Shown in pieces: positions 9,040 to 64,000 of a DNA stretch of 64,000 nt. Source of the stretch: Armatimonadota bacterium (GTDB taxonomy: Bacteria; Sysuimicrobiota; Sysuimicrobiia; Sysuimicrobiales; Humicultoraceae); contig JAVKHP010000001.1 in the NCBI GenBank assembly GCA_031459855.1, positions 2,828,309 through 2,892,308 on the forward strand, in the 5' to 3' direction. Under the pieces are notes generated by a model. It was not told the DNA's origin, ran no database searches, and saw nothing but the letters and a program-made list of their open reading frames with translations. The first letter of the stretch is position 1, and each line of letters opens with the position of its first letter. A program made the translations under genes and the position numbers.

Positions 9040-9040
9040 G

Positions 9041-9307
9041 CTAGGCCGGCCGCCAGACGAACACGTTGGGCTGCTCGGTCGGCTCGATCGTGCCCTCGGA
9101 AGCGGTCACCTCGAAGGTCAGGGGCTCGCCCTCGGGATCGCGCGCCAGGATCGTGATGCGCGCCGTCTGACCTGGCAGGAGCATGGGTGGATCGATGATC
9201 ACCTGATCGATGACCGGCGGCTCGTTGACGTAGCCGGTGGCGTCCATCACGGTGACGTTGCCGACTTGATCGCGAACCGCAATGCGCAAGTGCACGGGCT
9301 TTGCCAT
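9041..9307 (-). CDS. Small Ig-like/cadherin-like fold protein
   Basis: The protein is 88 aa. Its beta-strand pattern includes GQTARITILARDPEGEPLTF, and DPEGEPL is a motif common in Ig-like, PKD and cadherin-type repeats of bacterial surface proteins. There is no signal peptide, membrane segment or further domain, so it is a single free-standing domain. AGGAGGCCGG precedes the ATG at 9307; the 25-codon upstream extension is less likely. It converges with the subtilase gene. The function is not recognisable, and it could be a fragment of a larger surface protein. Confidence 0.6.
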   Translation of the reverse strand: MAKPVHLRIAVRDQVGNVTVMDATGYVNEPPVIDQVIIDPPMLLPGQTARITILARDPEGEPLTFEVTASEGTIEPTEQPNVFVWRPA

Positions 9308-9537
9308 CTTCCGGCCTCCTGTTCGTTGGATCCACCCCTGCGGGGAAGAGGGGAAACTCACTGGATATATACCACGGACCACGCGCCGGTAGTCATCCAG
9401 GAGCCTGTCGAAGCCTTGGCACTGGCAGGTTCACCCGCGGCGATCCCTGGCGGAACCGTCAAGGCAAACTACCGAAGGGACGAGCAGCGCGGGGCCAGCC
9501 CGATGGCTGAAACCCGCGTCCTGATTAGAGTCTAGTC

Positions 9538-9616
9538 TGGGGTGGCCGAGGGGATTCGAACCCCCGACCTCCTGGGCCACAGCCAGGCGCTCTCACCAGG
9601 CTGAGCTACGGCCACC
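9538..9616 (-). tRNA. tRNA-His (GTG anticodon)
   Basis: The cloverleaf folds cleanly. Acceptor GTGGCCG pairs with CGGCCAC. Anticodon stem CCTGG/CCAGG encloses loop CTGTGGC with anticodon GTG. The T-loop is TTCGAAT. It has the histidine-specific extra 5' G (position -1) opposite discriminator C73, and CCA is encoded. Confidence 0.97.
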
Positions 9617-9628
9617 GCGCCGGGGGTC

Positions 9629-9637
9629 ATTCTAGCA
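9629..9637 (-). promoter_or_regulatory. Extended -10 of tRNA-His
   Basis: The minus strand reads TGC-TAGAAT, ending 12 nt before the tRNA 5' end. This is the same extended -10 style seen upstream of several protein genes here. A weak TGGCGA lies 17 bp further up. Confidence 0.6.
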
Positions 9638-9879
9638 CAGGCACCCGCGCTTCGCCACACACGCCGACGTGCGGAACGTGCGGACGCGTGGCACCGTCGG
9701 GCCACGGGCGACCGGGCGTGGACGTGGTGCCTGAGCGCGCAGGCCGTTGGGTACATCCTTCTCGGGTCCGACGCGGCAGCCCGGGGCGCGAGGCGTCGCG
9801 TCCGGAGAGGAACGCGCGTCCGGGGAAGACGCGTGCCTGCGGGGGCCGGAGCCCGTGGCACGCGCGGGAGGTGTGCACG

Positions 9880-10467
9880 GTGACGGTCTCGCCGGAACTC
9901 CGGCAGCGCATCTACGAGGAGGAGCGCCTCCGCCTCGAGGCGCGCGCGCGCCTCGAAGAAGAGCTCCGGCTGCGCCGGCAGGGCGTCGCATTGGGTATGC
10001 GCCTGCTGCTGGTGGTGGCGTTCTTCGCTGCTGGCTACGCGGTCTCGGACTACGTGCTCAGCAGGCCGCAGCCGGTGCCCGAAGCGGCGCCGGTCAGCGC
10101 CGTGCGCCCCACCATCGATCCAGCGGTGCTCGACGCCGTCCGGGCGGCGCTGGTCCCGGAGCAGCCTGCCGAGGTGTGCGTGCGCGCGGTGGGGACGGCG
10201 CAGCCGCAGGTGCGCGCGACGATCGAGCTCGCGGCCGACACCACCACAACCCGCGCCCGGCGGCTGGCCCTGGCGAAGGCCGAGGCCGTGGGCGCCGTGC
10301 TGCGCCGCCACGGCCTCGCGCTCCCGGCGTACGTCGAAGTCGTCGCGCCGGGGCGCTGGTACGGCATGGCGGTCTACGATCGCGACACGCTGCGCATCAC
10401 GTGGGACCCGTGCCCCGGCCGCTGTACGGCGGAAGGCACCCGCCACGTCCGACGCTGTACCCCGTAG
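9880..10467 (+). CDS. Single-pass membrane protein, unknown function
   Basis: I do not recognise this 195-aa protein. A charged amphipathic helix rich in Arg/Glu (residues about 5-40, RQRIYEEERLRLEARARL) precedes one transmembrane segment (MRLLLVVAFFAAGYAVSDYVL). A soluble C-terminal half of about 130 residues contains four cysteines. The N-terminal helix style occurs in other bacterial single-span proteins of unknown function. The GTG start at 9880 follows GGGAGG at 9867. The gene stands alone between tRNA-His and the DUF192 gene, which is convergent. Confidence 0.65.
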   Translation: MTVSPELRQRIYEEERLRLEARARLEEELRLRRQGVALGMRLLLVVAFFAAGYAVSDYVLSRPQPVPEAAPVSAVRPTIDPAVLDAVRAALVPEQPAEVCVRAVGTAQPQVRATIELAADTTTTRARRLALAKAEAVGAVLRRHGLALPAYVEVVAPGRWYGMAVYDRDTLRITWDPCPGRCTAEGTRHVRRCTP

Positions 10468-10542: not shown

Positions 10543-10956
10543 CTACGGTCCTTGCCGGTTCGCAGTCCCGACCGTCTCCATCTCTTTGCGCGTGCCCGCG
10601 TCGCCGGCCGGCTCGCTGACGAACTCGACGACATCACCAACTTGGGTCTCGCTGCTGTGCACCACGCCCGCCGGCAGCTCCAGGGCCGAGTGGGCGCGGG
10701 GCACCGGCCAGACGATCTGGCCCGGGCGCACACCCCGCACCACCCGGACCACCCGGCGGTCTGCGTCCAGGAACACGACGTCGATCGGGTGACGCATCCC
10801 GAACGTCTGCACGGAGTTGCACGGCACCAGCCAGACACCGTCGCCAAACCGCAGGTCGCGGTGCGCCAGTAGGCCGAGCAGGCGCGCACGAAAGGAGTTG
10901 GCGACCTGCACGTTCACCCCCAGGTACGTACCCCGCGTCCGGTTGATCACGTACAT
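10543..10956 (-). CDS. DUF192 family protein
   Basis: The protein is 137 aa. Core motifs are ARLLGLLAHRDL, GVWLVPCNSVQTFGMRHPID and VVFLDADRRVV, matching the DUF192 beta-sandwich family. The motif with a conserved Cys and the sequence xxTFGMRxPID is diagnostic. Function is unknown; many relatives are secreted, but this one has no signal peptide. It starts 23 bp after the secretin gene stop with GGGGGAGG before the ATG, so it is the last gene of the Tad pilus transcription unit. DUF192 genes near Tad loci recur in several lineages, suggesting a pilus-related job. Confidence 0.85.
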   Translation of the reverse strand: MYVINRTRGTYLGVNVQVANSFRARLLGLLAHRDLRFGDGVWLVPCNSVQTFGMRHPIDVVFLDADRRVVRVVRGVRPGQIVWPVPRAHSALELPAGVVHSSETQVGDVVEFVSEPAGDAGTRKEMETVGTANRQGP

Positions 10957-10979
10957 CCCGGGCCTCCCCCGTGGGACCC

Positions 10980-12455
10980 CTACGGCGACGACGTGGGCTC
11001 TGCCGGCACGGGTGGCGCCTCCCGGGTCGGTGTGACCACGCTGGGCGAGACGAAGACGACCAGCTCGGTTTCGCCTCGCTGGAACCGGGTGCTGCGGAAG
11101 AGCTGTCCCAGCACGGGGATGTCACCCAGCAGCGGGACTTTCTGCACGTTCTGGCTCTGCTCGCGCTGAATCAGCCCACCCAGCAGCAGGAACTCCCCTG
11201 GCCGCAGCATTACCGACGTCTGCACCTCGCGCTTACGGATGGTCGGGATCACGAAGCCGGCGGCCACGATGGCGTTGGAGAAGTCCAGCGTGCTCACCTC
11301 GGCGCGCAGGTCCATCATCAGGCCCTCGCCGCCGCTCATCGCCGGCGCGGGCAGGCACTCGAGCTGGTCACCCTGTTTGCGTAGCAGCGAGTTGACGCAG
11401 AACTCCAGCCGGATCCCGAACTCCTTGAACTGGATCGTCACCGTGCGGTCGGCCTGCACGATGGGAACGGGCAGTTCGCCGCCCACCAGCAGCTTGCCGG
11501 GCCGGCCCTGCATCACCACCGCCCGCGGGTTCGCCAGGGTGCGGGCCGCGCCCCGGGCCTCCAGGGCGCGCAGCCGGGCCACCAACAGTTGCAGCGGCGT
11601 CAGCGGCCAGCCCTGGTTCAGGTTCCCAAAGTGGAAGGCGAACGGGTCGGTGAGGAACGGGTCAGCCGCCTGGCCGCCGCCCCACTCCACCCCGATCTGC
11701 TGGAGCGCGGTACGGTCGAGCTCCACGAACGTGGTGTCCACGCGGATCTGCAGCGGCGACGTGACGCGCACCAGGAACGTGACGTTCTTGACGAACGTCC
11801 GGGCGATGCTCTCCAGGCGCCGCAAGTCTTCCTGGGTAGCAACCCCGCCCTCGACGATGGCGGTGTCCAGGTCGAGCAGGCGCACGGTCACCTGGAACCC
11901 GCGCAACGCCTCGCGTAGCTGCGCCTCGCGGGCGGCCCGGGCGGCCTCGGCGGCCTGGCGGCGCTGCTCCTCCTCCGTCGCCTTCGTCTGCTCAACGGTC
12001 AAGGCATTGGCCACGGTGCGCCCGGCGGCCAGGGCCTTGGCGATCTCCTCCGCCCGCTTCCTGTCGTCCTCGGTCTTCACCGACCCTTCCAGGACCACCA
12101 CCTGCCCGACCACCCGCACCGTCAGCCGGGGCTCGCGCAGCACCTGGGTGATGGCCTGCACGAGGTCTTCGGCCGGTCCGGGCACCACCACGATCCGGTA
12201 CGTGGTGAAGCCCCGCGCATCCCACACGCTCAGCGTCGTCTCGCCGACCTTCTTGGCGATCACCATCAGCTCGTTGCGCGTAATCAGGTTCACATCGGCG
12301 ATCTCGGGCGCCGCCACCACGATGCGCTGGGCCCCGCTGACCTTGAGCAACAGCCCGTGGTTGACCTGCACGACGACGGTCTCGCTGGCGTCGACGACCG
12401 GCGCCGCGATCGTTGCTAGGACCAGAACAAGAGCACTCGCAAGCAGCGTGCGCAT
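10980..12455 (-). CDS. rcpA: Tad pilus secretin RcpA/CpaC
   Basis: The protein is 491 aa with a signal peptide (MRTLLASALVLVLATIAAPVVDA). An N-terminal pilus-assembly domain carries VNHGLLLKVSGAQRIVVAAP. A BON-like segment (LTVRVVGQVVVLEGSV) follows, then the C-terminal secretin domain with ANPRAVVMQGRPGKLLVGGE and LLLGGLIQREQS. Secretins form the outer-membrane channel through which the Flp pilus exits, so its presence implies an outer membrane. GAGGAGGCTC precedes the ATG at 12455; the 19-codon longer form lacks this. It is the ninth gene in the operon, whereas in many Tad loci rcpA lies near flp. No rcpB or tadD is in the window. Confidence 0.93.
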   Translation of the reverse strand: MRTLLASALVLVLATIAAPVVDASETVVVQVNHGLLLKVSGAQRIVVAAPEIADVNLITRNELMVIAKKVGETTLSVWDARGFTTYRIVVVPGPAEDLVQAITQVLREPRLTVRVVGQVVVLEGSVKTEDDRKRAEEIAKALAAGRTVANALTVEQTKATEEEQRRQAAEAARAAREAQLREALRGFQVTVRLLDLDTAIVEGGVATQEDLRRLESIARTFVKNVTFLVRVTSPLQIRVDTTFVELDRTALQQIGVEWGGGQAADPFLTDPFAFHFGNLNQGWPLTPLQLLVARLRALEARGAARTLANPRAVVMQGRPGKLLVGGELPVPIVQADRTVTIQFKEFGIRLEFCVNSLLRKQGDQLECLPAPAMSGGEGLMMDLRAEVSTLDFSNAIVAAGFVIPTIRKREVQTSVMLRPGEFLLLGGLIQREQSQNVQKVPLLGDIPVLGQLFRSTRFQRGETELVVFVSPSVVTPTREAPPVPAEPTSSP

Positions 12456-14459: not shown

Positions 14460-15741
<1,282 letters not shown>

Positions 15742-15755
<14 letters not shown>

Positions 15756-16878
15756 GGTCGACCCTCCCGATCTGCGCGCGCAGCGTCCGCGCCAGCGCCA
15801 CGACCCGCTGCGAGAACGGCGCGCCCGGCTCCGACAGCAGCAGCGGGACGCCCCGGTTGGCCGCCGCGACGACGCGGTCGTCGCGCGGCAGCACCATGGT
15901 GAACGGCCGGCCCAGGGCGCGCTCGGCGTCCTTTTGCGCCACCGAGATGCGCTCATCGTAGCGGTTGCCGACCATCAGGATGTTGTGCGCGGGGAACCGC
16001 AGCTTCGCCAGCATCTCGAGCAGCTGCGCGACGTCCTTCAAGCAGACCACGTCGAGCGTGGAGACGGCCAGCACCACGTCGGCCACGTCCAGGGTGGCCA
16101 GCATGGTCTCCAGCGACGAGACGGTGGCGTCGACGACCACGAACTCGTAGAGGTCCTGCAGCACCCCCAGGATACTGCGGAACCGTTCCGGGCCGATCTC
16201 CTCGGCCTGCTCCGTCCGCACGGGTGCCGCCAGGACCTCGACGCCCGACGCGTGGGGCAGCAGGAACCGGTCGGCCACCTCGGCGTCGAGGGCCGCGTTG
16301 AGCTCGTAGATCGTCCGCTCCGGCTTGAGGTTGAGCAGCAGGGCGATGTCGCCGAAGTAGAGGTCGCCGTCGACCAGCGCCACCCGCCCGCTGTCGAGCT
16401 GCCGCAGGGCCACGGCCAGGTTGGCGGCGAGTGTGCTCTTCCCCACGCCGCCCTTGCTGGATATCACCGCCACCACGGCCCCCCGGCGCGCCGCCACCGC
16501 GCCGCCGAAGTCGCGCGCCTCGTCCAGCACCCGCAGGATCGCGTCCTCGCTGAGCGGCTCGAACAGGCATTCGCGCGCGCCCGCCTTCATGGCGCGCCGC
16601 AGCTCCTCGGGCCGGTTCCGGGGCGAGACCATGGCGATGTACAGCCCGGGATGCTGGCGCGAGAGACGGTCGGCCACGTCGAACCCCCGCATGTCGGCCA
16701 GGTCGGTGGAGACGAAGACGAGCTGGGGCCGCCGGTAGGTCACGGCGTCCACCAGCCGCACGTCCGTGTCCACTGTGGCCACGACCCGTGCTGCCCGGTG
16801 GTGCGCCACGACCCGGTGGATCAGGTTCGCCGTGCCCTCGTCGGGCACGGCGACGACGACGCGAATGTGGTCGGCCAC
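15742..16878 (-). CDS. cpaE: Pilus localisation ATPase TadZ/CpaE
   Basis: The protein is 378 aa. The N-terminal 125 residues form a receiver-like domain (VVVAVPDEGTANLIHRVV, PEELRRAMKAGARECLFEPL). A ParA/MinD-type ATPase follows with the deviant Walker A AVISSKGGVGKSTLAANLA and LVDGDLYFGDIALLL. In Tad systems this protein marks the pole or site of pilus assembly. The GTG at 16878 follows AGGAGCGG. Twelve bp separate it from the tadG-like stop, and its 3' end overlaps cpaF. Confidence 0.92.
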
Positions 16879-16890
16879 GCGCTCCGCTCC

Positions 16891-17973
16891 TCACTCGATG
16901 AGCTTGATGGTGTAGACGCCGGTGTCGAACTCGGTCTCGGTGCCCACAGCCTGGGCACTGACGATCGAGACGAACCCGCCGTTGATGGTGGGATTCTGCC
17001 CCGTGAGCTTCCCCTGGCTGCAGTCGAGCTGGAACGCCACGAACCCCCAGATCTCGGTGGTGTAGGTCCCCTGGCCGCCCTCGATGTACGCCGGGTTCAG
17101 CAGGGGCATCATGATGATCTGGTCCATGGGATCGGACGAACTGCACCGGTAGCCGATCCCCTGGTTGAGGGCGCCGATCTTCACACCGGTCTCGGTCTTG
17201 ACGTTTGCGCACAACGTGGGACTGCCGTCAGGATACGTGCCCCCGGTGACGCTGGCCGTCTGCCCCATGTCGTAGCAGTAGGGGGTGGGCGCGCCGAACT
17301 TGAAGTACTGCTCCCACTGTTGCGCCCCGCCGCTGGGGCAGTCGAAGCAGCCCATGCTGAGCAGGCCGGTGTTGCCCGAGCCCCACGGGTTGGTCTTGCT
17401 GCTGATGTCGACGGTAATTCCGAACGATCGGCAATGTTCGGGCCGGGCGTCGAGCAGTGTGCCGGCCGTCACGTACCCCCAGCAGTCGGACGCATGGTAG
17501 GGCTCCCACACGTCGTAGTTCAGGCCAAGCGGCACCAGGCCTTTCGTCAAGATCACCGGCGTCAGCTTGGCCGCGCAGTCCACCGCGACCTCGACGCTGT
17601 CCCGCACCAGCCGGAGGAAGAACAGCGGCACCACCGCGTGGATCTCGGCCCGCACCCGGTCGGGCCCGACCAGCGTGGGCTGCCAGGTCTTGTCGTAGGT
17701 GGCCGCCTCCAGCGAGGTCCAGGCGATGTTGTTGCGGCGCATGTCGTTCGCCGCGTACCGTTCCGTCGTGGGCACCACCGACGCGGGGTCGCGCCGGAGG
17801 TTCAGCGCGCCCGCCAGCACGCCAGCGTCGCACGCGTTCTGCATCGCGCGCCGGTAGCGCAACAGGATGCCGAAGTCCACCGCCATCCCCACGAAGAGCA
17901 GCAGCACCAGGAACGTGACGACGACGAAGACGACCGCCGCACCGTGCTGTCCCTGCCGCGCCTGCGCCCTCAT
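16891..17973 (-). CDS. TadG-like minor pilin/membrane protein
   Basis: The protein is 360 aa. The N-terminal TadE/TadG signature (QHGAAVVFVVVTFLVLLLFVGMAVDFGILLRYR) begins with QxGAxx, a single helix, followed by ACDAGVLAGALNLRRDP. The long extracytoplasmic part has about ten cysteines (including GCFDCPSGG and YRCSSSDP), suggesting disulfide bonds. It lacks the VWA domain found in many TadG proteins. The start ATG at 17973 overlaps the cpaB stop as ATGA. Probably a minor pilin or assembly factor on the cell surface. Confidence 0.85.
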   Translation of the reverse strand: MRAQARQGQHGAAVVFVVVTFLVLLLFVGMAVDFGILLRYRRAMQNACDAGVLAGALNLRRDPASVVPTTERYAANDMRRNNIAWTSLEAATYDKTWQPTLVGPDRVRAEIHAVVPLFFLRLVRDSVEVAVDCAAKLTPVILTKGLVPLGLNYDVWEPYHASDCWGYVTAGTLLDARPEHCRSFGITVDISSKTNPWGSGNTGLLSMGCFDCPSGGAQQWEQYFKFGAPTPYCYDMGQTASVTGGTYPDGSPTLCANVKTETGVKIGALNQGIGYRCSSSDPMDQIIMMPLLNPAYIEGGQGTYTTEIWGFVAFQLDCSQGKLTGQNPTINGGFVSIVSAQAVGTETEFDTGVYTIKLIE

Positions 17974-18872
17974 CGCCGTGGCTCCTCGAAACGCACCGTG
18001 GTCCGCGACGTCGAGCGCCACACGTCCACTGCGTAGACCAGTGGCGGGGCCGGTGGGGCCGCCGCCACCGTCGCCCGGGCCGCGGCCTGGCGAACTGCCC
18101 GCCGCACGCCGTCGGTGCGGGACGCGACCGTTGTCTGGGCCGCGGGCCGGGGCGTTGCTGCGACCGCCGTTCGGCCCAGCGCCGTCTGGATCGTCTTGCC
18201 CGCGGTCTGGACCTTGTCGGCCACACCGTGCGGGCGCAGCGCCAGCCGCACCCGGCCGTTGTTGTCGACCTGGGCCAGGACCTCGGCCTGGTCCGGCGTG
18301 ACCGCCAGGGTCGCCGAGGTGCTGACCTTCGGCTCCTCACCGGGCTTCTGCTCGACCTTCTGGGCGATGGCCAGGACCTCGACGTCCTGGAGCACGATCT
18401 TGGTCAGGTTCAGGTCGCCCTGGCTGACCGTGGCGACCACGTCGACGTGGTCGCCCGGGAAGACGAAGCCCGCTACGCCCACCACCTCGTTGACGGCAAT
18501 GGTCATGGCGCGCTTGTCGCGGGGCAGCACGTACGACAACCCCACGTTGACACCCGGCGGCGCCAGCTTCGAGGTCAACACCTGCTCGTCGGCGAAGAGC
18601 GGCGCGATCGCCACGCGGTTGACCACGTCCTCCACGCGGCGGGCCGCCTGCGGGTGGATGGCCGTCACCGGCACCTGACGCAGCTCCACCGCGTCGGGCA
18701 TCACGAGCTTGCGCTCGCCCACGTTGGTCCGCGCGAACACCACCGCCGCCGTCTCCACCGGCGCGACAACCGTCACCTGCTGGCGCAGCGACTGCAGGTA
18801 CCCCACCACGACACCGGTCGTCAGCAGCGCCAGCACCAGGGAAATCGCCGGCACAATCCATCTGCGCCTCAT
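17970..18872 (-). CDS. cpaB: Flp pilus assembly protein CpaB/RcpC
   Basis: The protein is 300 aa. It has an N-terminal membrane anchor (WIVPAISLVLALLTTGVVVGYL), an SAF domain (VVFARTNVGERKLVMPDAVE, VNRVAIAPLFADEQVLTSKL), and the RcpC C-domain with RAMTIAVNEVVGVAGFVFPG and DHVDVVATV. It is a periplasmic factor thought to help the secretin. An Arg/Ala-rich tail of about 80 residues is longer than usual. GAGGAGGGCGAGG precedes the ATG. Confidence 0.93.
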   Translation of the reverse strand: MRRRWIVPAISLVLALLTTGVVVGYLQSLRQQVTVVAPVETAAVVFARTNVGERKLVMPDAVELRQVPVTAIHPQAARRVEDVVNRVAIAPLFADEQVLTSKLAPPGVNVGLSYVLPRDKRAMTIAVNEVVGVAGFVFPGDHVDVVATVSQGDLNLTKIVLQDVEVLAIAQKVEQKPGEEPKVSTSATLAVTPDQAEVLAQVDNNGRVRLALRPHGVADKVQTAGKTIQTALGRTAVAATPRPAAQTTVASRTDGVRRAVRQAAARATVAAAPPAPPLVYAVDVWRSTSRTTVRFEEPRR

Positions 18873-23908: not shown

Positions 23909-24501
23909 CCCGCCCCCCTTGTGCTGGCGATGGACCGGCACGGTTCACCGGCCGCGCCGTCTTGCCGGAGCCCCTGACAAAGACGACGGCCATCCCACTC
24001 GTCGTGAATGAGATGGCCGGTTGCGCCACTCGCTCACCCGTCCCGAGGCGCCCACCTGTTACCGGGACGAGGTCATTGCGTCCATCCGCGCCTGCGCGCT
24101 ATGCGAGACACCACCATCCCGCCCGTGGCGTGTAACCGACGCGCATCCCCGGGTGTGACGATGGTGTCCAGCGTCTGTATTCTCGATGTGCGCTGCTACT
24201 CTCTACTACTACCCAACCGGGTGGTTTTTAGACATGGAGAGTGCCGTCAAGATCTTCGCAGGTTCCCACGCTACACCGCCGGTCATCAGACAACTGCGCC
24301 ATACGATGGATCTCACTTATCCCCCGGGAGCGGTACGGTGCGACGCGCCCCAGCCCTACGACCTAGCTGTGAATCGCACCAGGGGCATGCGCGCTGCGGG
24401 ACGCGGCCCGGCCACCGCCTTGGCTACTGCGGCCTGTGGACACCGAACGCCGGGCGGCGTCACCGCACGCAGCCACCGCGCACCGGCCCGCCGCGTGTGC
24501 C
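23909..24501. other. Intergenic region without a recognisable gene
   Basis: About 590 bp separate the LuxR-type gene from the M19 dipeptidase stop. Base composition falls noticeably at 24170-24330. Reading frames present are short and lack ribosome-binding sites. I see no RNA fold or promoter that I can support, apart from a weak AACC/GGTT hairpin followed by T's near 24220. Confidence 0.5.
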
Positions 24502-54638: not shown

Positions 54639-54716
54639 TCGGATCTACCTTCCACCACCGACCGCCACATTGCTGAGAGGAGCAACGCGCTCAGAAGCAG
54701 GTCGTAATCGCTGCGC

Positions 54717-54741
54717 TGGTGGAGGCGGCGGGAATCGAACC
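54717..54741 (-). other. 3'-terminal fragment of a tmRNA (ssrA) gene, probable att site
   Basis: The minus strand ends in T-loop TTCGATT, CCCGC, acceptor strand CGCCTCC, A, CCA, the form of a tmRNA 3' end. The sequence just upstream (GGCGG) does not complete the T-stem: two of five pairs fail. There is also no tmRNA 5' domain or tag frame within the next 500 bp. Similarity therefore stops abruptly at 54741. This is what remains at one edge when an element integrates into ssrA. A tRNA-gene 3' remnant is the alternative; no matching D or anticodon arm is present. Confidence 0.65.
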
Positions 54742-55358
54742 GCCTGCCCCCGATCCCCCGCCTACCCCTACCTAGGCCCGAAAGGCCCGCTGTGCTTGGC
54801 TTCTAGGCGATAGATCGAACGCTTGTTCACCCATCAGTTCCTGCCTATTCCCGTGGGGTCTGGACACAATTTGGACACACCACCTGAGTGCGCCACGGCT
54901 CGCGGGGCGTTAGCGTTTCCTAGCCGGGAAGTGCTGAGTCATTCGCTACCAGTTTCCGGAGAAGTGGCTGGTACGCAGACCTCGCGTGGCTGGCTGCGGG
55001 TGAACCTAACGACTGCGGCCAGTGGCCCGGTGCATCGCATGGTTGGGCGCCGAAGGCCACTCGTCACAGCTCGCTGGGGATGGTGCCCTGCACCCGTTCC
55101 ACGAAGCCATTGGCCCACGCATGCCGGGGGTTTGGTCCGGCGGTGCTCGATCCCCAGTGCTCCCACCACTTCCCGGGACACGACCTCTCTTCCCACCACT
55201 TCCCGAGACGCGGCCTCCGCATACGCCAGCAAAGTCAAAGTACGGAACTACCCGCAGCGGGGAAGAGAGTACCGCGACTGCAACATGCTCTCGCTGCCAT
55301 GCCCTTGACGCCTGGGGAGCCATCTTAGATAGATACGGCTCAGCCTGCTGCTTAGAGG
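54742..55358. other. Decayed interval inside the proposed island edge
   Basis: No intact gene is visible in this 617-bp stretch. It holds a short direct repeat TGGACACA-ATT-TGGACACA near 54870 and an integrase-like remnant (55043-55135). It also holds a 27-bp unit repeated at 55161-55187 and 55191-55217 (TCCCACCACTTCCCG..., period 30). Composition is less GC-rich than the chromosome to the left. Confidence 0.6.
55043..55135 (-). pseudogene. Fragment of an IS481/integrase-core transposase
   Basis: One minus-strand frame reads RHAWANGFVERVQGTIPSEL, stop, RVAFGAQ. This closely resembles the conserved C-terminal motif of IS481-type integrases (xRHAWTNGFVERLQxTIL followed by WRVAF), with the tryptophan position now a stop. 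No more of the gene is recognisable on either side. Confidence 0.45.
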
Positions 55359-55904
55359 TCATAGGGCACGGTATCGCCAATTTACGTGTAATTCTCGCAG
55401 ACGACCACGGCTGTCCCAATACCGGACGTAGCCATTGCGGCGCCCGAACTCGTATAGATTCCAGGTGAGCTCCACATCTTTCCGGCAGTACTCCACCACC
55501 CGGTCTACCTGTCCCTGCCGCCACCAGCGCACCATCTGCCACCACTCCGCTGACTTACCCCGGCCCAGCGTTGCTACCGAGAGCTGGTGCAGTCCTACCT
55601 TCCTGTGCAACCGCGCCCGTACTTCCTCCAGGATATCCAGTGTGGCGACTGTTCGCAGGGAAGCGCCGCCGTAGCGCTCCAGCACCGCGTAGTCGAAGGA
55701 CTGCACAGCGAAACCCACCACTAGGTCTGCGCGGCGTAACACCGCTACGAGGTCCGCCGCCTCCGCTTCGGAGTACGCGCGAAAGCATCCCGTGACTTCG
55801 TGGAAAGTGACTGCGATTGCCAGTCGCGGCGCCCTCCAGCCGCCGTGGGATTCCGCGTCCCAGTCCTGCGTCTCTACGTCCACGACGACAACTCCGTCAC
55901 CCAT
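55359..55904 (-). CDS. DEDDy-type 3'-5' exonuclease-like protein (YprB/RNase H-like)
   Basis: The protein is 181 aa. All four DEDD acids and the ExoIII tyrosine are in place: D9-E11 (VVVVDVETQDW), D71 (VVGFAVQSFDYAVLERYGG), and Y139-x3-D143 (VVEYCRKDVELTWNLYEF). This matches the YprB-like RNase_H-type branch of 3'-5' exonucleases, without any helicase domain. GGTGG precedes the ATG at 55904. It lies 88 bp beyond the leader-distal end of the CRISPR array, same strand as the cas operon. It might be island cargo or an accessory nuclease; DEDD exonucleases trim prespacers in some type I-E systems, but linkage here is only positional. Confidence 0.8.
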   Translation of the reverse strand: MGDGVVVVDVETQDWDAESHGGWRAPRLAIAVTFHEVTGCFRAYSEAEAADLVAVLRRADLVVGFAVQSFDYAVLERYGGASLRTVATLDILEEVRARLHRKVGLHQLSVATLGRGKSAEWWQMVRWWRQGQVDRVVEYCRKDVELTWNLYEFGRRNGYVRYWDSRGRLRELHVNWRYRAL

Positions 55905-55992
55905 AAGCCACCGTCAGAATAGCTCAGAATACATGCGTTTCATCGCCCGGCCTGTTAACGCGCCCGTACTGAGCCTACTCAGGAGGTCAGCC

Positions 55993-58900
55993 GGCTCATG
56001 CCGCGCATCCGGGGAGCAACACTGCGCCGTTACGACGACCCTCAAGGCAGCCCGGTTTATCCCCGCGCTTGCGAGGACAACACAGGCACCGATCTGGAGA
56101 GCGCCGCGCGCATCGCTTCATCCCCGCGCGTGCGGGGACAACGCAGTCTCGGGCTCACGGCGTCCACCAGCCTGCGGTTCATCCCCGCGCGTGCGGGGAC
56201 AACCGTGACAACGAAGTCATCGCCCTCGATGTACTCGGTTCATCCCCGCGCGTGCGGGGACAACGTATTATGGTCACACAGGTAGAGCCGCCCGTCCGGT
56301 TCATCCCCGCGCGTGCGGGGACAACCAAGTGGTTCCTCCTGCATGGGCTCCTCCTCCCGGTTCATCCCCGCGCGTGCGGGGACAACGGTTATCGAACCTC
56401 GGCTGGCGTCGCTATGATCGGTTCATCCCCGCGCGTGCGGGGACAACGGGCGCCGTATTGCAGAACTTGCCGATACCATCGGTTCATCCCCGCGCGTGCG
56501 GGGACAACTCCCAGTCTCGGTCTCGCACGGTCTGTTCCTCCCGGTTCATCCCCGCGCGTGCGGGGACAACGAGCGCGACGTAGTGGCCGTGGCGCTTGCA
56601 CACGGTTCATCCCCGCGCGTGCGGGGACAACGCGTACCGAGACCTGCTGCACCAGGACCTGTACGGTTCATCCCCGCGCGTGCGGGGACAACTGTATAGG
56701 ATGCGGGTTCACTCGTGCCTGCAACGGTTCATCCCCGCGCGTGCGGGGACAACGGCGTGGTCGCACGTTTCGCGTTGCGTTTCATCGGTTCATCCCCGCG
56801 CGTGCGGGGACAACCGGGCAAGGTGCTTGCGCTTGCGCGCATTTTACGGTTCATCCCCGCGCGTGCGGGGACAACGGAGCCCCTGCCAGGCCGTGCTCCC
56901 TACGTGTCGGTTCATCCCCGCGCGTGCGGGGACAACGTTCTCGACGTCGAACTCTGCCAGGTCCTCGAGCGGTTCATCCCCGCGCGTGCGGGGACAACCC
57001 CTATTGACAGACCGAACGTCTGTCACCTATCGGTTCATCCCCGCGCGTGCGGGGACAACGCGCTCGCCTGCTGCACCTGCTCGGCAACGAGCGGTTCATC
57101 CCCGCGCGTGCGGGGACAACAGGTGGCTGCCTGCGCCCTCGCTCGCCGCCAGCGGTTCATCCCCGCGCGTGCGGGGACAACATCAGGCCGGCACGGTTAC
57201 GGGCCGCCTCAGCCAGGTTCATCCCCGCGCGTGCGGGGACAACCCCCGGCAACGTCGGCCTGATCGCGCGCAAGACCGGTTCATCCCCGCGCGTGCGGGG
57301 ACAACGTTCTGCAGGAGCGACATGATTTTCTGCAACTCGGTTCATCCCCGCGCGTGCGGGGACAACGTAGGCATGCGCCCGGTCGAAGTGCTCTTGGACG
57401 GTTCATCCCCGCGCGTGCGGGGACAACGGACCCAACGGGTGCCACGAACGGGCCCCAACACGGTTCATCCCCGCGCGTGCGGGGACAACGGATGGGGCGC
57501 AATGTCACGCAATGACAACGGCCGGTTCATCCCCGCGCGTGCGGGGACAACGTGGACGGAATTAGCGTTTCGGCCACTCGGGACGGTTCATCCCCGCGCG
57601 TGCGGGGACAACGAGGTCGCGCTGCTGTACGCCGATCCGTTCGTCGGTTCATCCCCGCGCGTGCGGGGACAACCCCGGGTAGGGCACGCGCACCGGCCCC
57701 GCGTTCGGTTCATCCCCGCGCGTGCGGGGACAACATGCTGGCGATGCGACTGGCGATGCGCGCGAACGGTTCATCCCCGCGCGTGCGGGGACAACTTCCC
57801 CTTGGCCAGCCAGATTGCGAGTGACGGCGGTTCATCCCCGCGCGTGCGGGGACAACGACGCACGAGGTGCTGCACCCCGGCGCGCAGGACGGTTCATCCC
57901 CGCGCGTGCGGGGACAACGCTCTGCGCTTCGGCGGCCGCTTGGTGCTCCAGCGGTTCATCCCCGCGCGTGCGGGGACAACGCATCCATCGTTTCCGTGAA
58001 CGCCGGCGTCATCGGTTCATCCCCGCGCGTGCGGGGACAACATCAGCCGGCTCTCCGTCCGCTGGCAGTGGGTCGGTTCATCCCCGCGCGTGCGGGGACA
58101 ACTACGATGAGGACATCTGCGGCCGCTGCCCGTTCGGTTCATCCCCGCGCGTGCGGGGACAACGGTGGTATATGTGCCCCAGCACAGGAAGCCTATCGGT
58201 TCATCCCCGCGCGTGCGGGGACAACCGCTACCGACGCACGCAGACGCGCTAACGCGGCGGTTCATCCCCGCGCGTGCGGGGACAACGATGTGTCCCTGAG
58301 CAGAGAACGCGAAGTACACCGGTTCATCCCCGCGCGTGCGGGGACAACTCAGGCGGTCACGAGCTTGAGGCCGCGGTAGACGGTTCATCCCCGCGCGTGC
58401 GGGGACAACGAGCGTCGCATGCCGAAACGACTGCGGCTCCAACGGTTCATCCCCGCGCGTGCGGGGACAACTTGGAAAGTGCGTCATGCCCACTGTCTCT
58501 CACCGGTTCATCCCCGCGCGTGCGGGGACAACGTGACCAAACTTGTTCTCCATCGGCAGCACATGCGGTTCATCCCCGCGCGTGCGGGGACAACTTTAGC
58601 GGTCGTCGGCGTGCGCTCAACGGTTGCTCGGTTCATCCCCGCGCGTGCGGGGACAACGACACCGCCCAGCGACGCGGCCTCCCTGCAGACCGGTTCATCC
58701 CCGCGCGTGCGGGGACAACACAAAGAGTATGTCGCGAAACGTCACCGGGGACGGTTCATCCCCGCGCGTGCGGGGACAACGTTCGATTGCGTTGTGTATA
58801 TCGTTGTCCCGTTCGGTTCATCCCCGCGCGTGCGGGGACAACGCACACCCCGACGGGGTTCGTGCGCGCCGAGGACGGTTCATCCCCGCGCGTGCGGGGA

Positions 58901-59148
58901 CAACGGTTTGACTGGGCGACGGGGGCCTACGTATATCGGTTCATCCCCGCGCGTGCGGGGACAACGCCGTGGCCACCCGGCGGTTCGTTGGTAGTAACGG
59001 TTCATCCCCGCGCGTGCGGGGACAACAGCCACCGCTCGGCCTCGCGCTTCCAGTTGAGCGGTTCATCCCCGCGCGTGCGGGGACAACGTGCGCGAACACG
59101 ACGGTTTTGCACCCCTCGTCGGTTCATCCCCGCGCGTGCGGGGACAAC
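55993..59148 (-). CRISPR. Type I-E CRISPR array, 52 repeats and 51 spacers
   Basis: A 28-bp repeat (plus strand GGTTCATCCCCGCGCG..., ending GGGGACAAC) recurs every 61-63 bp. On the minus strand it begins GTTGTCCCCGCAC and ends GGGGATGAACC, the type I-E orientation with a hairpin and an ATGAACC(G) 5' handle. I count 49 identical copies. Three more lie at the left end in register: 56115 (one mismatch), 56054 (three mismatches) and 55993 (heavily diverged). Spacers are 33-35 nt counting the base before the repeat, all visibly different. Decay at the left marks the old, leader-distal end, so transcription runs leftward from the cas2 side. Confidence 0.98.
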
Positions 59149-59189
59149 ACCACACAGACGTACGATCCCAGCCCCGAACGTCTGTTCGG
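59149..59189 (-). promoter_or_regulatory. Very short CRISPR leader with inverted repeat
   Basis: Only 41 bp separate the newest repeat from the cas2 stop codon. They contain ACAGACGT (59154-59161) and its exact complement ACGTCTGT (59178-59185), plus a nested CCGAAC/GTTCGG hairpin. No -35/-10 pair is visible, so the array promoter is either inside cas2 or upstream in the cas operon. Confidence 0.65.
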
Positions 59190-59546
59190 CTACCCGACCT
59201 CGCTCCGCCTCGCTATTTGTTTTTCAAGGTACTTGCGGCGCTTGATGGCCTCGCCCTTCCGAACCGCCTCGGCGTTCCGTACGGTTACGAGCTGTAGACC
59301 GTCGAAGTCTCTCACGAAGCGATCCTCATACCCTGCGACGCGCACCGAGAAGCCCTGCTCGGTGTTCGTCCGGTGGACAAGGCAGCAGCGACCGCCCTTC
59401 GCCTTCTCCAAACACTTGACCCACAACAGCTCCCGCACCGTGGCGCTCAGCTTCCCGACGAACATCCCGGTGTCTACCTCGACCATCCAACGGGTCAACT
59501 CACCCCGCAGGCTCTTCGGTACTCTCTCCAGGATCAGCACCACCAT
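59190..59546 (-). CDS. cas2: CRISPR-associated endonuclease Cas2, subtype I-E
   Basis: The protein is 118 aa. It begins MVVLILERVPKSLRGELTRW, the I-E Cas2 signature, and continues VDTGMFVGKLSATVRELLW and NTEQGFSVRVAGYEDRFVRD. It forms the central dimer of the Cas1-Cas2 integrase that inserts new spacers. The start ATG at 59546 lies 47 bp inside the cas1 3' end, a long overlap implying coupled translation. GGTGG precedes the ATG. The C-terminal tail after residue 95 is basic (KRRKYLEKQIARR); some I-E Cas2 proteins instead carry a fused exonuclease here. Confidence 0.96.
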   Translation of the reverse strand: MVVLILERVPKSLRGELTRWMVEVDTGMFVGKLSATVRELLWVKCLEKAKGGRCCLVHRTNTEQGFSVRVAGYEDRFVRDFDGLQLVTVRNAEAVRKGEAIKRRKYLEKQIARRSEVG

Positions 59547-60477
59547 AGGCCACCCCACCCGGTACGGGCCCCTCCGGATCCCACAGCCAGCCTGGCTTCG
59601 CGGCATCCACGTCGTAGTCGTTCTCCGCCTCCTCAGGTACCAGACCCTCGAACAGCCGGTGCAAATCGTCCACCGCCCGTTCGAGTAGCCGGACCTCGCG
59701 GATGCGTTCGCGCAGGACGCGTCGGATACGGGATTCCACGTCGTCCGGCGATTCCGCCACCGTGGTGAAAGCTGCGGGAACCAGCAACTCGGTCTTGTAC
59801 AGGTCTGCCACGTCGTAGATGAAGGACAGCTGCTTACCCACGTGGATGAACCCCAAGGCCGGGCTATACCCGGCGGACACAACGGCCGCGTGGCACAGTC
59901 CATACAGAAACGCCGCGCCGGCCGACAGCGCCCGGTTTATCGGATCGGCCGTGGCCCACCTGCCCCGGTCGTAGTGCCGTCCTGACCACGGAACTCCTGT
60001 CCGATGGCTCCACGACTCGTAATAGCTTCTTACCCGGGCTCCCTCCAGCCCTCGCAGCTGCGCGAGTCCCAAGTCGTCCGGTAGCGGGGTGGTAAACCGG
60101 AACCGGTAAAGCCGCTTCACTACCTCAAGATGAGAGGCGGGGTCAGCCCACGCTCGAGCCTGACGGAGCAACCGCGAAGCGCTGCGGGTCTCACCCACGC
60201 CGCAGGCGTAGAACCGAGCAAAGTCCTCTCCGACCCACAACACTGTGCAGCCATTTTCAGCGAGAGCGCGAATCGCGGCATGGGTAATCCGTGTACCGGG
60301 CCCCAATGCCAGCACGCCGAGAGCCGCCACCGGTACGAGAGTGACCCCTTGCTCTTCATAGAGAGCGATCCCCTTCGCCTCCTGTTCGATGACCGCGTGC
60401 TCCACGTAAAGGTAGGACAACCCGTCCCGGAACCGCGGGAGCTCGTTCAGGTTGCGCGAGGAACGGACCGACGGCAC
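59500..60477 (-). CDS. cas1: CRISPR-associated integrase Cas1, subtype I-E
   Basis: The protein is 325 aa. Metal-binding residues fit Cas1e: E145 (LAQLRGLEGARVRSYYESW), H212 (ALGFIHVGKQLSF) and D222/D225 (FIYDVADLYKTELL). The N-terminal beta domain contains SYLYVEHAVIEQEAKGIALY. It carries out spacer integration with Cas2. A 30-residue Gly/Glu-rich tail is encoded in the region shared with cas2. The GTG start at 60477 lies 2 bp after the cas6e stop. Confidence 0.97.
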   Translation of the reverse strand: MPSVRSSRNLNELPRFRDGLSYLYVEHAVIEQEAKGIALYEEQGVTLVPVAALGVLALGPGTRITHAAIRALAENGCTVLWVGEDFARFYACGVGETRSASRLLRQARAWADPASHLEVVKRLYRFRFTTPLPDDLGLAQLRGLEGARVRSYYESWSHRTGVPWSGRHYDRGRWATADPINRALSAGAAFLYGLCHAAVVSAGYSPALGFIHVGKQLSFIYDVADLYKTELLVPAAFTTVAESPDDVESRIRRVLRERIREVRLLERAVDDLHRLFEGLVPEEAENDYDVDAAKPGWLWDPEGPVPGGVAYGGADPGESTEEPAG

Positions 60478-60479
60478 GG

Positions 60480-61091
60480 CTACCTCATCAGTGCAACAGA
60501 GAGTAGGCCCAGCCCCAGGGCCTTCCCGTGCCCGATGCCCTCCTGGATTGCATTACGGAGCTTCCCCGGATCCCGGACCTGCAGGACTCCGTCAAACCGG
60601 GCAACCCACAGGACGATTGCTTGCTCCTGACCACGCTTTGGAAAGCTCCGCCGCTCGGTCCGGGTCACGTTGGCTCCCAACACGGCGAACCCCGCCTTTT
60701 CTGCCTGTCGGTGCAGCCACAGAAGTTGCTCCTCTATTCTGCGCAGGCCGTGGCGCTTGCCACCCCGGGTTACTGTCGGATTGGCTTCCAGGCGAAACCG
60801 CAACACCTGGCCTTCACGGAGGCGCACCGCCAGCTCCTGAGGCTTCGTCTCAGGGGCCTGGGCGAAGTAGCCTGCGAATCCGTCGCGCGTGTCCAGGCGC
60901 GAAAAGTCCGGCCGCATGAGACTCTGTAGCAAGACCGTAGGCGGCCGGGTGGACTCCAGACGCCAAAGGGGGCGTGCGGCTTTAGGGTCCTCGAATAGCC
61001 ACGACAGAGTCGCGTGCATGGCGTAAGGGTTGCTGAAGTCGCGCCTAGCAAGCGGATGCCGAGGGTTGAGTACCAGCCTAGAAAGGTACAT
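60480..61091 (-). CDS. cas6e: crRNA-processing endoribonuclease Cas6e (CasE/Cse3)
   Basis: The protein is 203 aa. Catalytic H26 is in FSNPYAMHATLSWLFED, the Cse3 signature. The C-terminal glycine-rich RNA-binding loop is GIGHGKALGLGLLSVAL. It cuts the pre-crRNA at the base of the repeat hairpin, leaving the 8-nt handle. The ATG at 61091 is supported by the family start MYLSRLVLN; the 16-residue longer frame lies inside cas5e. It overlaps the cas5e end by 14 bp. Confidence 0.96.
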   Translation of the reverse strand: MYLSRLVLNPRHPLARRDFSNPYAMHATLSWLFEDPKAARPLWRLESTRPPTVLLQSLMRPDFSRLDTRDGFAGYFAQAPETKPQELAVRLREGQVLRFRLEANPTVTRGGKRHGLRRIEEQLLWLHRQAEKAGFAVLGANVTRTERRSFPKRGQEQAIVLWVARFDGVLQVRDPGKLRNAIQEGIGHGKALGLGLLSVALMR

Positions 61092-61773
61092 GGGGTATCT
61101 CACCCGCCGGTGCGGTAACGATCCACACATACCGCTCACCGAACCGCCGCTCCCGTAAGGGAGCGATGGGCAGGTCGGTTCGGCGCACTCGGCTCACGAC
61201 TTCTCTCTGCACCCTAGCGCCAGGGCGTTCCTCCAAGGCGTACCGGTAGCTTTCCGGGGGCGGCTCGACGAGTGGCCGATATCTGGCCAGGGCTTCCTCA
61301 AGAGCAGCGTCCACAATCCCGTCCGGGATCCACACGGGCGGACTTGGCAGATAGCTCTTGCGCCCGAGGTACAAGGGCCAGCGGGGGTTCTGAACGGCCT
61401 CGTACAGCTGTCTCAGGAACCGCCAATCGCCAGACTCAAGACCCACTAAGAAGGCGGCGTCCGCCAGGTAGTAGCGCCTGCTCTGCACGGTGCCCTTGGG
61501 GTCGCCCGGACGGGGAACGGTCCCGTCAGCGCGCATGACCCTCATGGCCGTTTGATAGTCGTACTGAAGCACGCCCTGCCGGTCTACCCGCACTCCCATT
61601 CGCAGGGCACACAGATCATCCAGCGCGTCGGTCCTCGCCCGCCCGAGGGCTGCGCAGAGCAGCCCGATGACCCCGCTTTTGGACGGCTCGAGTCCTGTGT
61701 CCCGCCGGTCGAACCGACTCGCCGTCCCCCACGACTGCATGGGACCCTGCAACCGAAGCAAGAGCGTGTTCAT
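61078..61773 (-). CDS. cas5e: Cascade subunit Cas5e (CasD)
   Basis: The protein is 231 aa. The N-terminus MNTLLLRLQGPMQSWGTASR and RFDRRDTGLEPSKSGVIGLL is the classic Cas5e/CasD opening (PMQSWG, T.P.KSGVIGLLCAALG). It caps the 5' handle of the crRNA in Cascade. The start ATG overlaps the cas7e stop as ATGA. Confidence 0.96.
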   Translation of the reverse strand: MNTLLLRLQGPMQSWGTASRFDRRDTGLEPSKSGVIGLLCAALGRARTDALDDLCALRMGVRVDRQGVLQYDYQTAMRVMRADGTVPRPGDPKGTVQSRRYYLADAAFLVGLESGDWRFLRQLYEAVQNPRWPLYLGRKSYLPSPPVWIPDGIVDAALEEALARYRPLVEPPPESYRYALEERPGARVQREVVSRVRRTDLPIAPLRERRFGERYVWIVTAPAGEIPHVPF

Positions 61774-62939
61774 GCCGTTGTGCCAAGCAGAGCCCGCACC
61801 CCTGACATGGCGGCCTGGATGACGTCCTCGATCGTATTCTTTCGCGCCTCGGGGTAGTACGCGAGTTCACCGTCTGAGAGGTTGACCAAGGCGACCCACT
61901 CCTTTGCGGGTTTACCATACACTCGGTCTAGCTCCGCCCAGTAGCGAGTCAGCACCTCTACGGAAACTCCGGTCAGACTCTTTCCGTCGGTTGGACGCAC
62001 GGGCCTCTCGAATGCTGCCGCGAGGTTGCGCGGCATCCCGTTCTCGCGGACGATCAGGCCTACGAACTTCGGGGGACTGTGGGCCGCGAAGGTGTTCTGC
62101 TTACCCGATGGCAAGGTGAGGATGAACGCGCGCAGGAAAGCCTCCACGCCCCGGGCGGCTAGGTCGCGATCCCCCCGCAGGTTCTGGGCCAGGAGTTCCA
62201 GGTCCACGTTTGCGTACCGATAGAACGTTGCCGTGTAGTACTCCACGTCCCCCATCATGCCCGCCCCGGTCTCTTCCCGCGGTGCGAGGTCGTCCACTGC
62301 GGTATAGAAGTCGAACTCCCGGTCCACCCGGTGTGTGCTGATGGCATGCGCGACCTGACATGCCGCCTCGACGCCCCATTCGGGCCTGTCTGCCAGCATG
62401 CGACCGAAGAGCGCGACGTCGACCGCGCGACCACCGTCGAGAATAGCATTAAGGGCGTTCCGCACCGTTTCCGGCGCGCCTTGCCGCGCCGTATTCTTCT
62501 TGTCCTTCTTGCTTTGCGGCCCCAGCGTAGCGCTCGCGGTCAGCAGTGCCTCCCAGTGCTCCTTGAGTGCCCTGGCCAGCGTATCAATCTCCCTATTCCC
62601 CAGGAAGAGTAGGTACTGCGTACGGTAGGTCGCTTCGTCGGCAACCAAGCCGATGGCACGCAGCGCTGCAGCGGCCACGCGTCTCACCTGCTCCGGAGGA
62701 CGATCTTGGAACCGTGTCACCAACTCGTCGACCAACAGCCGCGTCCGCACCGCACGATCCTCTGGACTCAACAGCTCCCGGTTGGAGAAGTACTGGCGGA
62801 CCGCCCGTTTCTGCGCCTGGCTGCTGATTCGCGCTCGACGGAAGCCGCCAAACAAGGTGTCTTTCGGGCTTCCCGTGTCGTCGCGGTTCAGGTTGGCCGG
62901 AGGGACCGGCTGAAGGATGTGAACTTCCACCAGGTTCAT
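61770..62939 (-). CDS. cas7e: Cascade backbone subunit Cas7e (CasC/Cse4)
   Basis: The protein is 389 aa. It begins MNLVEVHILQPVPPANLNRD with DTGSPKDTLFGGFRRARISS and QAQKRAVRQYF, the strongly conserved N-terminus of Cse4. Others are DVALFGRMLADRPEWGVEAA, ISTHRVDREFDFYTAVDDL and GAGMMGDVEYYTATFYRYA. Six copies coat the spacer in the complex. GGAGGTGC lies 5 nt before the ATG. Start overlaps the cse2 stop as ATGA. Confidence 0.97.
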   Translation of the reverse strand: MNLVEVHILQPVPPANLNRDDTGSPKDTLFGGFRRARISSQAQKRAVRQYFSNRELLSPEDRAVRTRLLVDELVTRFQDRPPEQVRRVAAAALRAIGLVADEATYRTQYLLFLGNREIDTLARALKEHWEALLTASATLGPQSKKDKKNTARQGAPETVRNALNAILDGGRAVDVALFGRMLADRPEWGVEAACQVAHAISTHRVDREFDFYTAVDDLAPREETGAGMMGDVEYYTATFYRYANVDLELLAQNLRGDRDLAARGVEAFLRAFILTLPSGKQNTFAAHSPPKFVGLIVRENGMPRNLAAAFERPVRPTDGKSLTGVSVEVLTRYWAELDRVYGKPAKEWVALVNLSDGELAYYPEARKNTIEDVIQAAMSGVRALLGTTA

Positions 62940-63460
62940 GATTGCACCTCCACCTGGGTCTCTTCTGATTCTGCCGGCGCTATCTCCGCGGACCGGTAGA
63001 ACTCCCGAGCCCACCGGCGCTGGACCCGTCGGTCCGGACTGAACCATCCCAGGAGGTCTTCAAGTAGACGCTGGTAGTTCACGCCTTTACGCTTTGACTT
63101 GAGATAAGCTACGACCCGTCGCAGCCGATCAGGCAACTGGTCGGAATCGGCGTCCAGCAATGCAAGAAACCGTCCCTCCAGGCTTGGGGGGCGATCTTCC
63201 TCCTGCCAGACCTGGGAGACTGCTTCGGCGAGGCTAGGCTTCTCGCCGTCGGGGTGAAGAGCGTACAGCCCGGCAACAAGGTAATAGGCCTGCCAGCGCC
63301 ACCCGTCCTCGTCCTGCACGAACGGCTCTACATAGCGGTAAGCGCGCGCGTCCCCCCACTCGCCCGGATTGAAAGCCAGGATACGTCGGAGGGCGGCCAT
63401 GGCGCCTCGGTCCTTCCGAAGATCTTCCAGGTACGCCACAAAGCGCTCGGACTTCTTCAC
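62936..63460 (-). CDS. cse2: Cascade small subunit Cse2 (CasB)
   Basis: The protein is 174 aa, helical. Family features include GAMAALRRILAFNPGEWGDA, WQAYYLVAGLYALHP and LPDRLRRVVAYLKSKRKGVN followed by YQRLLEDLLGW. As a dimer it stabilises the R-loop in Cascade. The ATG at 63460 overlaps the cas8e stop as ATGA. Confidence 0.94.
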   Translation of the reverse strand: MKKSERFVAYLEDLRKDRGAMAALRRILAFNPGEWGDARAYRYVEPFVQDEDGWRWQAYYLVAGLYALHPDGEKPSLAEAVSQVWQEEDRPPSLEGRFLALLDADSDQLPDRLRRVVAYLKSKRKGVNYQRLLEDLLGWFSPDRRVQRRWAREFYRSAEIAPAESEETQVEVQS

Positions 63461-64000
63461 AGGAGAAGCCTCCTCAGCTCAGTTTGCAGCCATCGCTCTG
63501 CCTCGGAAATCGCCCGTAGGTGGCGTGCCCCAGCCCCAATAGCGCGCACCGTCAGGCCCCAGGCTTGATGCACGGCCTCCGAAACCGCGTCCTTCCACCT
63601 CTGGAGGGCAACCCTCGCGCCGTCCAGCGTAAGCTGCCGTAGGAAGCGGGGAAACTCCACCTCCAACTCAGACCAATACGTGCTCTGGAGGGGCAGGCTA
63701 CGCGTGACCTCGAAAACCTCCCCCGGGGCGGCTAGGCCAGCGGCTAGGATACGGCCCGTCCTGCCGAGCACATTTCCAATCTCCGCAGCCAGCTTGAGGG
63801 CCTCCTGGATGCGCGCCGCCTCGTCGGGTTCCAGGGCACGGGCCGAGAGTGGATAGGCCTCGCGGCGGACGTCCTCGACCTTGGCCTGCCTCGTGATCTG
63901 CCCTACCACGGTCAGGGGGAAGAGCAGCGCCGCCCTATCCGTCTGCCGGAGGAACCGTCGGGCATGATCGACGGTGGCAGGTTGCCGCCAGGTGGCGTGA
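63457..64000 (-). CDS. cas8e: Cascade large subunit Cas8e (CasA/Cse1), C-terminal part only
   Basis: The frame is open from the stop at 63457 to the right edge, about 180 codons with no start needed. It contains the C-terminal four-helix bundle: ALEPDEAARIQEALKLAAEI, STYWSELEVEFPRFLRQL and AWGLTVRAIGAGARHLRAIS. Cse1 recognises the PAM and recruits Cas3. The N-terminal two thirds, and any cas3, lie beyond 64000. An internal GTG at 63909 is not the true start. First visible gene of the overlapping cas operon. Confidence 0.9.
   Translation of the reverse strand, partial: HATWRQPATVDHARRFLRQTDRAALLFPLTVVGQITRQAKVEDVRREAYPLSARALEPDEAARIQEALKLAAEIGNVLGRTGRILAAGLAAPGEVFEVTRSLPLQSTYWSELEVEFPRFLRQLTLDGARVALQRWKDAVSEAVHQAWGLTVRAIGAGARHLRAISEAERWLQTELRRLLL

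What the first reader, a model, noticed from the sequence alone, without database searches (positions are those of the whole stretch)
54717..64000. CRISPR-Cas region bounded on the left by an ssrA 3'-end remnant
A 25-bp tmRNA-like 3' terminus (T-loop to CCA) sits between ordinary chromosome genes and the exonuclease/CRISPR/cas segment. Its T-stem is broken exactly at 54741 and no tmRNA body follows. Integrative elements commonly use the ssrA 3' end, leaving such a fragment at one boundary and an intact ssrA at the other. Base composition also drops to the right, and a transposase fragment lies just inside. I infer that the type I-E system travels on an ssrA-targeting island, or was assembled next to one.
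Basis: partly seen in the sequence, partly recalled or inferred. Interest (0 to 1): 0.8.

Follow-up and report, generated by a model that had tools for sequence, protein, structure and literature searches.

The report
CRISPR-Cas genomic island in tmRNA gene
A complete bacterial CRISPR immune system sits inside a 14.25-kb DNA island that inserted into the 3' end of the tmRNA (ssrA) gene, leaving a 29-base copy of that end at the far edge and a broken integrase beside the intact gene; such islands are already known from a few other bacteria.

Summary
The 25-bp ssrA-like fragment at 54717-54741 (minus strand) has exactly one other copy in the 3.19-Mb genome: the 3' end of the single intact ssrA, same strand, 14,251 bp to the right. 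The exact repeat is 29 bp. A second 21-bp repeat lies inside both ends, as integrase arm sites would. A tyrosine-recombinase gene runs into the intact ssrA, but only its catalytic half remains. Between the repeats are a whole type I-E operon (cas3-cse1-cse2-cas7-cas5-cas6-cas1-cas2), 51 repeats with 50 unique spacers and a small exonuclease gene, at 65% GC against 72-75% outside. Cse1 occurs in only 2 of 43 genomes of the order, so the block is not ancestral. Other genomes of the order carry ssrA elements of the same architecture with unrelated cargo. One refinement: the integrase stub has host-like GC3 (0.93) but the cas genes do not (0.70-0.82), so the island looks composite and is now probably fixed. 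No held genome shows the empty site. CRISPR modules on such islands are already reported (Dehalococcoides ssrA islands; V. cholerae GIVchS12 at the VPI-1 site), so this is a new member of a known kind.

The parts
54713..54741 (-). Left attachment repeat: 29-bp copy of the ssrA 3' end (T-loop to CCA plus 4 bp); the other copy is at C1:2897272-2897300 (L011 14964-14992), part of the intact ssrA (L011 14968-15316, minus, outside the window)
   Evidence: exact repeat, only two copies of its 25-mer in the genome; shuffles 0/100
54861..54881 (+). 21-bp repeat TGGACACAATTTGGACACACC, candidate integrase arm-type site; second copy at L011 14901-14921, 47 bp before the ssrA 3' end
   Evidence: a genome search with the left 617 bp finds only these two copies; role inferred
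55065..55124 (-). Short transposase-like C-terminal motif (HAWANGFVERVQGTIPSEL*), relic at most
   Evidence: read from the sequence; no Pfam support in the ORFs tested
55359..55904 (-). Small RNase H-like 3'-5' exonuclease gene (181 aa)
   Evidence: PF13482 E=3e-5, PF01612 E=6e-5
56054..59148 (-). CRISPR array: 51 repeats (29 nt, GTTGTCCCCGCACGCGCGGGGATGAACCG on the minus strand), 50 unique spacers; the two repeats farthest from cas2 are degenerate
59190..59546 (-). cas2e
   Evidence: TIGR01873; start
59500..60477 (-). cas1e
   Evidence: TIGR03638 E=1.6e-106
60480..61139 (-). cas6e (casE)
   Evidence: TIGR01907
61078..61773 (-). cas5e (casD)
   Evidence: TIGR01868
61770..62939 (-). cas7e (casC)
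   Evidence: TIGR01869 E=8e-99
62936..63460 (-). cse2 (casB)
   Evidence: TIGR02548
63457..64000 (-). cse1 (casA), cut by the window end (L011 9457-10938); further right, outside the window: cas3 (L011 10957-13647, minus), truncated tyrosine integrase (L011 14157-15002, plus) and intact ssrA
   Evidence: TIGR02547 E=2e-72, Cas3 families, PF00589

Best explanation
This is an integrative genomic island that entered by site-specific recombination at the 3' end of ssrA. A tyrosine integrase recombined an element-borne copy of the ssrA T-loop-to-CCA segment with the chromosomal copy. The gene stayed intact on the integrase side (right), and a 29-bp copy of its end was left at the far side (54713-54741). 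The cargo is essentially one complete type I-E CRISPR-Cas system. The integrase gene has since lost its N-terminal half, so the island can probably no longer excise by itself, while the immune system appears intact. Shown: both repeats, both arm-like repeats, the intact ssrA, the truncated integrase, the full cas set, the composition shift and the sporadic distribution. Inferred: the recombination event itself, the arm-site role, loss of mobility, and CRISPR-Cas activity.
For: Exactly two genome copies of the 25-mer, one being the 3' end of the only intact ssrA on the same strand 14,251 bp away; 29-bp direct repeat and a second 21-bp repeat inside both ends; integrase catalytic domain abutting and reading into ssrA; low-GC interior 0.652 against 0.717 and 0.747 outside, with no 14.2-kb stretch of the left flank below 0.695; Cse1 in 2 of 43 genomes of the order; same architecture with other cargo in G031 and G040, partly in G019.
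Against: No empty site could be shown in a close relative. The integrase stub has host-like GC3 (0.929) while the cas genes have 0.70-0.82, and the right-hand GC step lies between cas3 and the integrase, not at ssrA, so integrase and cargo may not share one history.
Confidence: 0.8

Rival explanations
1. Composite island: an older ssrA element resident in the high-GC host lineage left its integrase stub and att ends, and the low-GC CRISPR-Cas block later entered or replaced its interior by another route (homologous recombination, IS-mediated capture, or a second ssrA element).
For: GC3 of the integrase equals host genes, cas genes do not; GC step at L011 about 13850, between cas3 and integrase; a transposase-like motif just inside the left end; tandem ssrA repeats in G019 show that elements stack at this site.
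Against: The low-GC DNA begins directly at the left repeat and includes the left copy of the 21-bp repeat, so one element end belongs to the low-GC part; no insertion scar was identified between cas3 and the integrase.
Confidence: 0.15
2. The CRISPR-Cas region is ancestral chromosome and the 29-bp repeat arose by a local duplication of the ssrA end, without an integrase.
For: G007 has a 123-bp partial copy of its ssrA (93% identical) 9.7 kb away with no integrase homologue of the panel found there, so ssrA ends can be duplicated otherwise.
Against: Integrase beside ssrA, 21-bp repeats at both ends, composition break and absence of Cse1 from 41 of 43 genomes.
Confidence: 0.03
3. Chance similarity of a 25-bp stretch to a tmRNA end.
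For: Only 25-29 bp are shared.
Against: 0 of 100 shuffles match even with 3 mismatches; the genome holds exactly two copies, at the two ends of an anomalous segment; the same repeat geometry recurs in G031 and G040.
Confidence: 0.01

Closest known systems
Dehalococcoides ssrA genomic islands (PMC3146451)
   Same: Inserted at the ssrA 3' end, intact ssrA on one side and a short direct repeat of its end on the other; 31 islands listed, among them two putative complete CRISPR modules with arrays
   Different: Moved by serine recombinases (DsiB/DsiA) with a 20-bp repeat, mostly reductive dehalogenase cargo; here a tyrosine integrase relic, a 29-bp repeat and type I-E as nearly the only cargo
Vibrio cholerae GIVchS12, at the VPI-1 site (PMC5109276)
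   Same: Island with tyrosine-type integrase, att sites and CRISPR-Cas; that VPI-1 uses ssrA is my own knowledge, not stated in the passages read
   Different: About 28 kb, also carries type VI secretion genes, full integrase, excision shown by PCR
Vibrio GI-24 (PMC6360697)
   Same: Type I-E CRISPR-Cas on an att-bounded island with integrase
   Different: Inserted between VC0289 and VC0290 homologues; excision assayed; integrase intact
Other ssrA elements of the same order (G031, G040, G019; L183-L185)
   Same: 28-29-bp copy of the ssrA 3' end, and a tyrosine integrase running into the intact ssrA in G031 and G040
   Different: Other cargo: methyltransferase; CheB-CheR-PAS-kinase and HSP20; molybdopterin oxidoreductase and transporter; in G019 integrase fragments lie inside the interval

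Membership tests
ssrA (tmRNA)-targeting integrative island | Intact ssrA at one boundary and a direct repeat of its 3' end at the other, same orientation | tested here: met
   29-bp exact repeat, 14,251 bp apart
ssrA (tmRNA)-targeting integrative island | Site-specific recombinase gene next to the intact ssrA | tested here: met
   PF00589 domain abutting ssrA; N-terminal half missing
ssrA (tmRNA)-targeting integrative island | Variable presence: empty site in close relatives | tested here: inconclusive
   no same-genus genome among those searched; left flank not syntenic in the nearest relatives
ssrA (tmRNA)-targeting integrative island | Excision as a circle (attP/attB products) | not testable with these tools
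   needs reads or PCR; the broken integrase predicts none without help
Integrative conjugative element or prophage | Transfer (relaxase, type IV secretion) or phage structural genes inside | tested here: not met
   main ORFs between the repeats are cas genes, exonuclease, array and integrase stub; scanned ORFs match no transfer or structural family
Type I-E CRISPR-Cas | cas3, cse1, cse2, cas7, cas5, cas6e, cas1, cas2e and an array of about 61-bp periodicity | tested here: met
   Pfam and NCBIfam I-E models; 51 repeats, 50 spacers
Type I-E CRISPR-Cas | Active interference and spacer acquisition | not testable with these tools
   genes intact in sequence only

The most novel reading that the evidence does not exclude
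The ssrA 3' end in this order is a shared docking site whose tyrosine-integrase elements swap cargo; here a foreign CRISPR-Cas system replaced the cargo, became fixed by integrase decay, and acts partly to exclude rival elements from the same site.
Probability: 0.06. Interest if true: 0.6.

Novelty: new member of a known kind. Interest (0 to 1): 0.35.

Why it matters
It is a clear example of how a whole adaptive immune system can be delivered to a chromosome through the tmRNA gene and then settle there, in a poorly known uncultured lineage. The island is almost nothing but CRISPR-Cas, and a decayed host-like integrase beside an intact foreign cas operon suggests domestication of an immune island. 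The principle is already published, so the gain is a new lineage, a compact and well-bounded case, and evidence that ssrA is a recurrent docking site in this order.

Tried and rejected
An attC-like structure at 54996-55060: folding no better than shuffles (z=0.38). N-terminal integrase relics upstream of the stub or at the left end: nothing convincing. Whole-locus tblastx for synteny was swamped by high-GC chance hits and not used. Enoyl-CoA hydratase orthologues in L093 and L094 gave no empty site, as their neighbours differ. The exonuclease as a CRISPR partner: homologues in three genomes have no cas genes beside them. Spacer targets: no match for three spacers in viral contigs or the first fourteen in phages; the remaining spacers were only compared with loci held here, where matches were 23 bp or shorter apart from the array itself. 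Donor of the integrase: phage and plasmid homologues all below 60% identity and incomplete.

Full report
The observation. The sequence GGTTCGATTCCCGCCGCCTCCACCA stands at 54717-54741 on the minus strand and is not a chance match: none of 100 dinucleotide-preserving shuffles of the window has it even with three mismatches. Infernal places it as the extreme 3' end of the tmRNA model, at 14.5 bits, far below the family's threshold of 47, so no gene body is present; ARAGORN finds no tmRNA in the window. GC falls from about 0.71 to 0.62 at the same place. The reported transposase fragment is no more than a 19-residue C-terminal motif, and the ORFs tested there have no transposase Pfam match.

The prediction. 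In the whole genome (3.19 Mb, four contigs; the window is C1:2828309-2892308) the 25-mer occurs exactly twice: at the remnant and at the 3' end of the only intact ssrA, C1:2897276-2897624, minus strand, 14,251 bp to the right. The exact direct repeat is 29 bp (GCGCTGGTGGAGGCGGCGGGAATCGAACC) and ends in the T arm, where left and right copies diverge at once. A second exact repeat of 21 bp, TGGACACAATTTGGACACACC, lies inside both ends: it starts 144 bp after the ssrA-end start on the left and 67 bp before it on the right. A genome search with the left 617 bp finds only these two places. Direct-repeat sites flanking the core in a circular form are the arrangement expected of arm-type integrase sites; that role is inferred.

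The integrase. An open frame at L011 14157-15002 (plus) runs into the ssrA 3' end and matches the tyrosine recombinase catalytic domain (PF00589, E=7e-13), with the R, HxxRH and Y motifs in place in the alignment. Relatives match only from the start of the catalytic domain, and their N-terminal domains give no convincing match upstream (best E=0.012, on the other strand). The gene has therefore lost its DNA-binding half, and the island is probably no longer self-mobile. Partial relatives with 54-60% identity occur in the same order.

The cargo. From right to left, all on the minus strand: cas3, cse1, cse2, cas7, cas5, cas6e, cas1, cas2, then 51 repeats with 50 unique spacers. Only the two repeats farthest from cas2 are degenerate, which fits an array that grew at the cas2 side. 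An RNase H-like exonuclease gene lies past the array. Its 65-67% identical relatives in three other genomes have no cas genes beside them, so it need not belong to the CRISPR system.

Foreignness and distribution. The island has GC 0.652; the left flank has 0.717, with no 14.2-kb stretch below 0.695, and the right flank 0.747. Cse1 is found in only 2 of 43 genomes of the order, and the second one (G009, 43% identical) lies on a contig with other neighbours and no ssrA end. The composition is not uniform: the integrase stub has GC3 0.929, as host genes do, whereas the cas genes and the exonuclease have 0.70-0.82, and the GC step on the right falls between cas3 and the integrase. I read this as a sign that the recombinase belongs to elements long resident in the lineage while the CRISPR-Cas DNA came from a lower-GC donor, either as their cargo or by later replacement of the interior.

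A recurrent docking site. Other genomes of the order show the same architecture with different cargo. G031 has a 29-bp copy, a methyltransferase gene and an integrase split over two frames, with ssrA 3.1 kb away. G040 has a 28-bp copy, a CheB-CheR-PAS-kinase protein, HSP20 and an integrase, with ssrA 9.3 kb away. G019 has two left copies, 10.6 and 14.1 kb from ssrA, with integrase fragments inside. The other side of ssrA (sua5-purK-purE) is conserved in three members of the family. An empty site could not be shown: no other genome of the same genus was among those searched, and the enoyl-CoA hydratase on the left has other neighbours elsewhere.

What is known. [quoted passage not shown] V. cholerae GIVchS12 carries CRISPR-Cas on an island with the VPI-1 integrase and att sites and excises as a circle (PMC5109276). 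Type I-E on an att-bounded island is known from GI-24 (PMC6360697). The present case combines these features in a new lineage, with a tyrosine integrase relic and hardly any cargo besides CRISPR-Cas. The kind is known; the member is new. The nearest relatives by the enoyl-CoA hydratase are named Armatimonadetes or unclassified bacteria in public records; the genome itself is unnamed here.

Noticed in passing
L044 (G007:C52) 1035-1302 and 10745-11092: A relative has a second, partial ssrA: 123 bp of its 3' part, 93% identical, 9.7 kb from the intact gene; none of the integrase panel matches between them.
   Followed up: partly
L185 (G019:C1) 3332, 6851 and 17450: Two successive ssrA-end copies left of one intact ssrA, with broken integrase pieces between: probable stacked elements at the same site.
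   Followed up: partly
L183 (G031:C5) 15179-18592: A 3-kb ssrA element holding little more than a methyltransferase gene and an integrase split over two overlapping frames.
   Followed up: partly
L182 (G009:C326) 799-10324: The only other type I-E locus found in the order; gene order cas3 to cas2 as here, Cas1 63% identical, preceded by a possible transcription-regulator gene; the contig shows no ssrA end.
   Followed up: partly
L011 13821-14030 (minus): A short high-GC reading frame (MEAIGVSGAAACVVREGRWWLVRSGYQVPGLRLCLRETDELEGEV) lies at the GC step between cas3 and the integrase stub; no relative among the loci held.
   Followed up: partly
window 24006-24092 (minus): Cyclic di-GMP-II riboswitch, 57.2 bits.
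   Followed up: no
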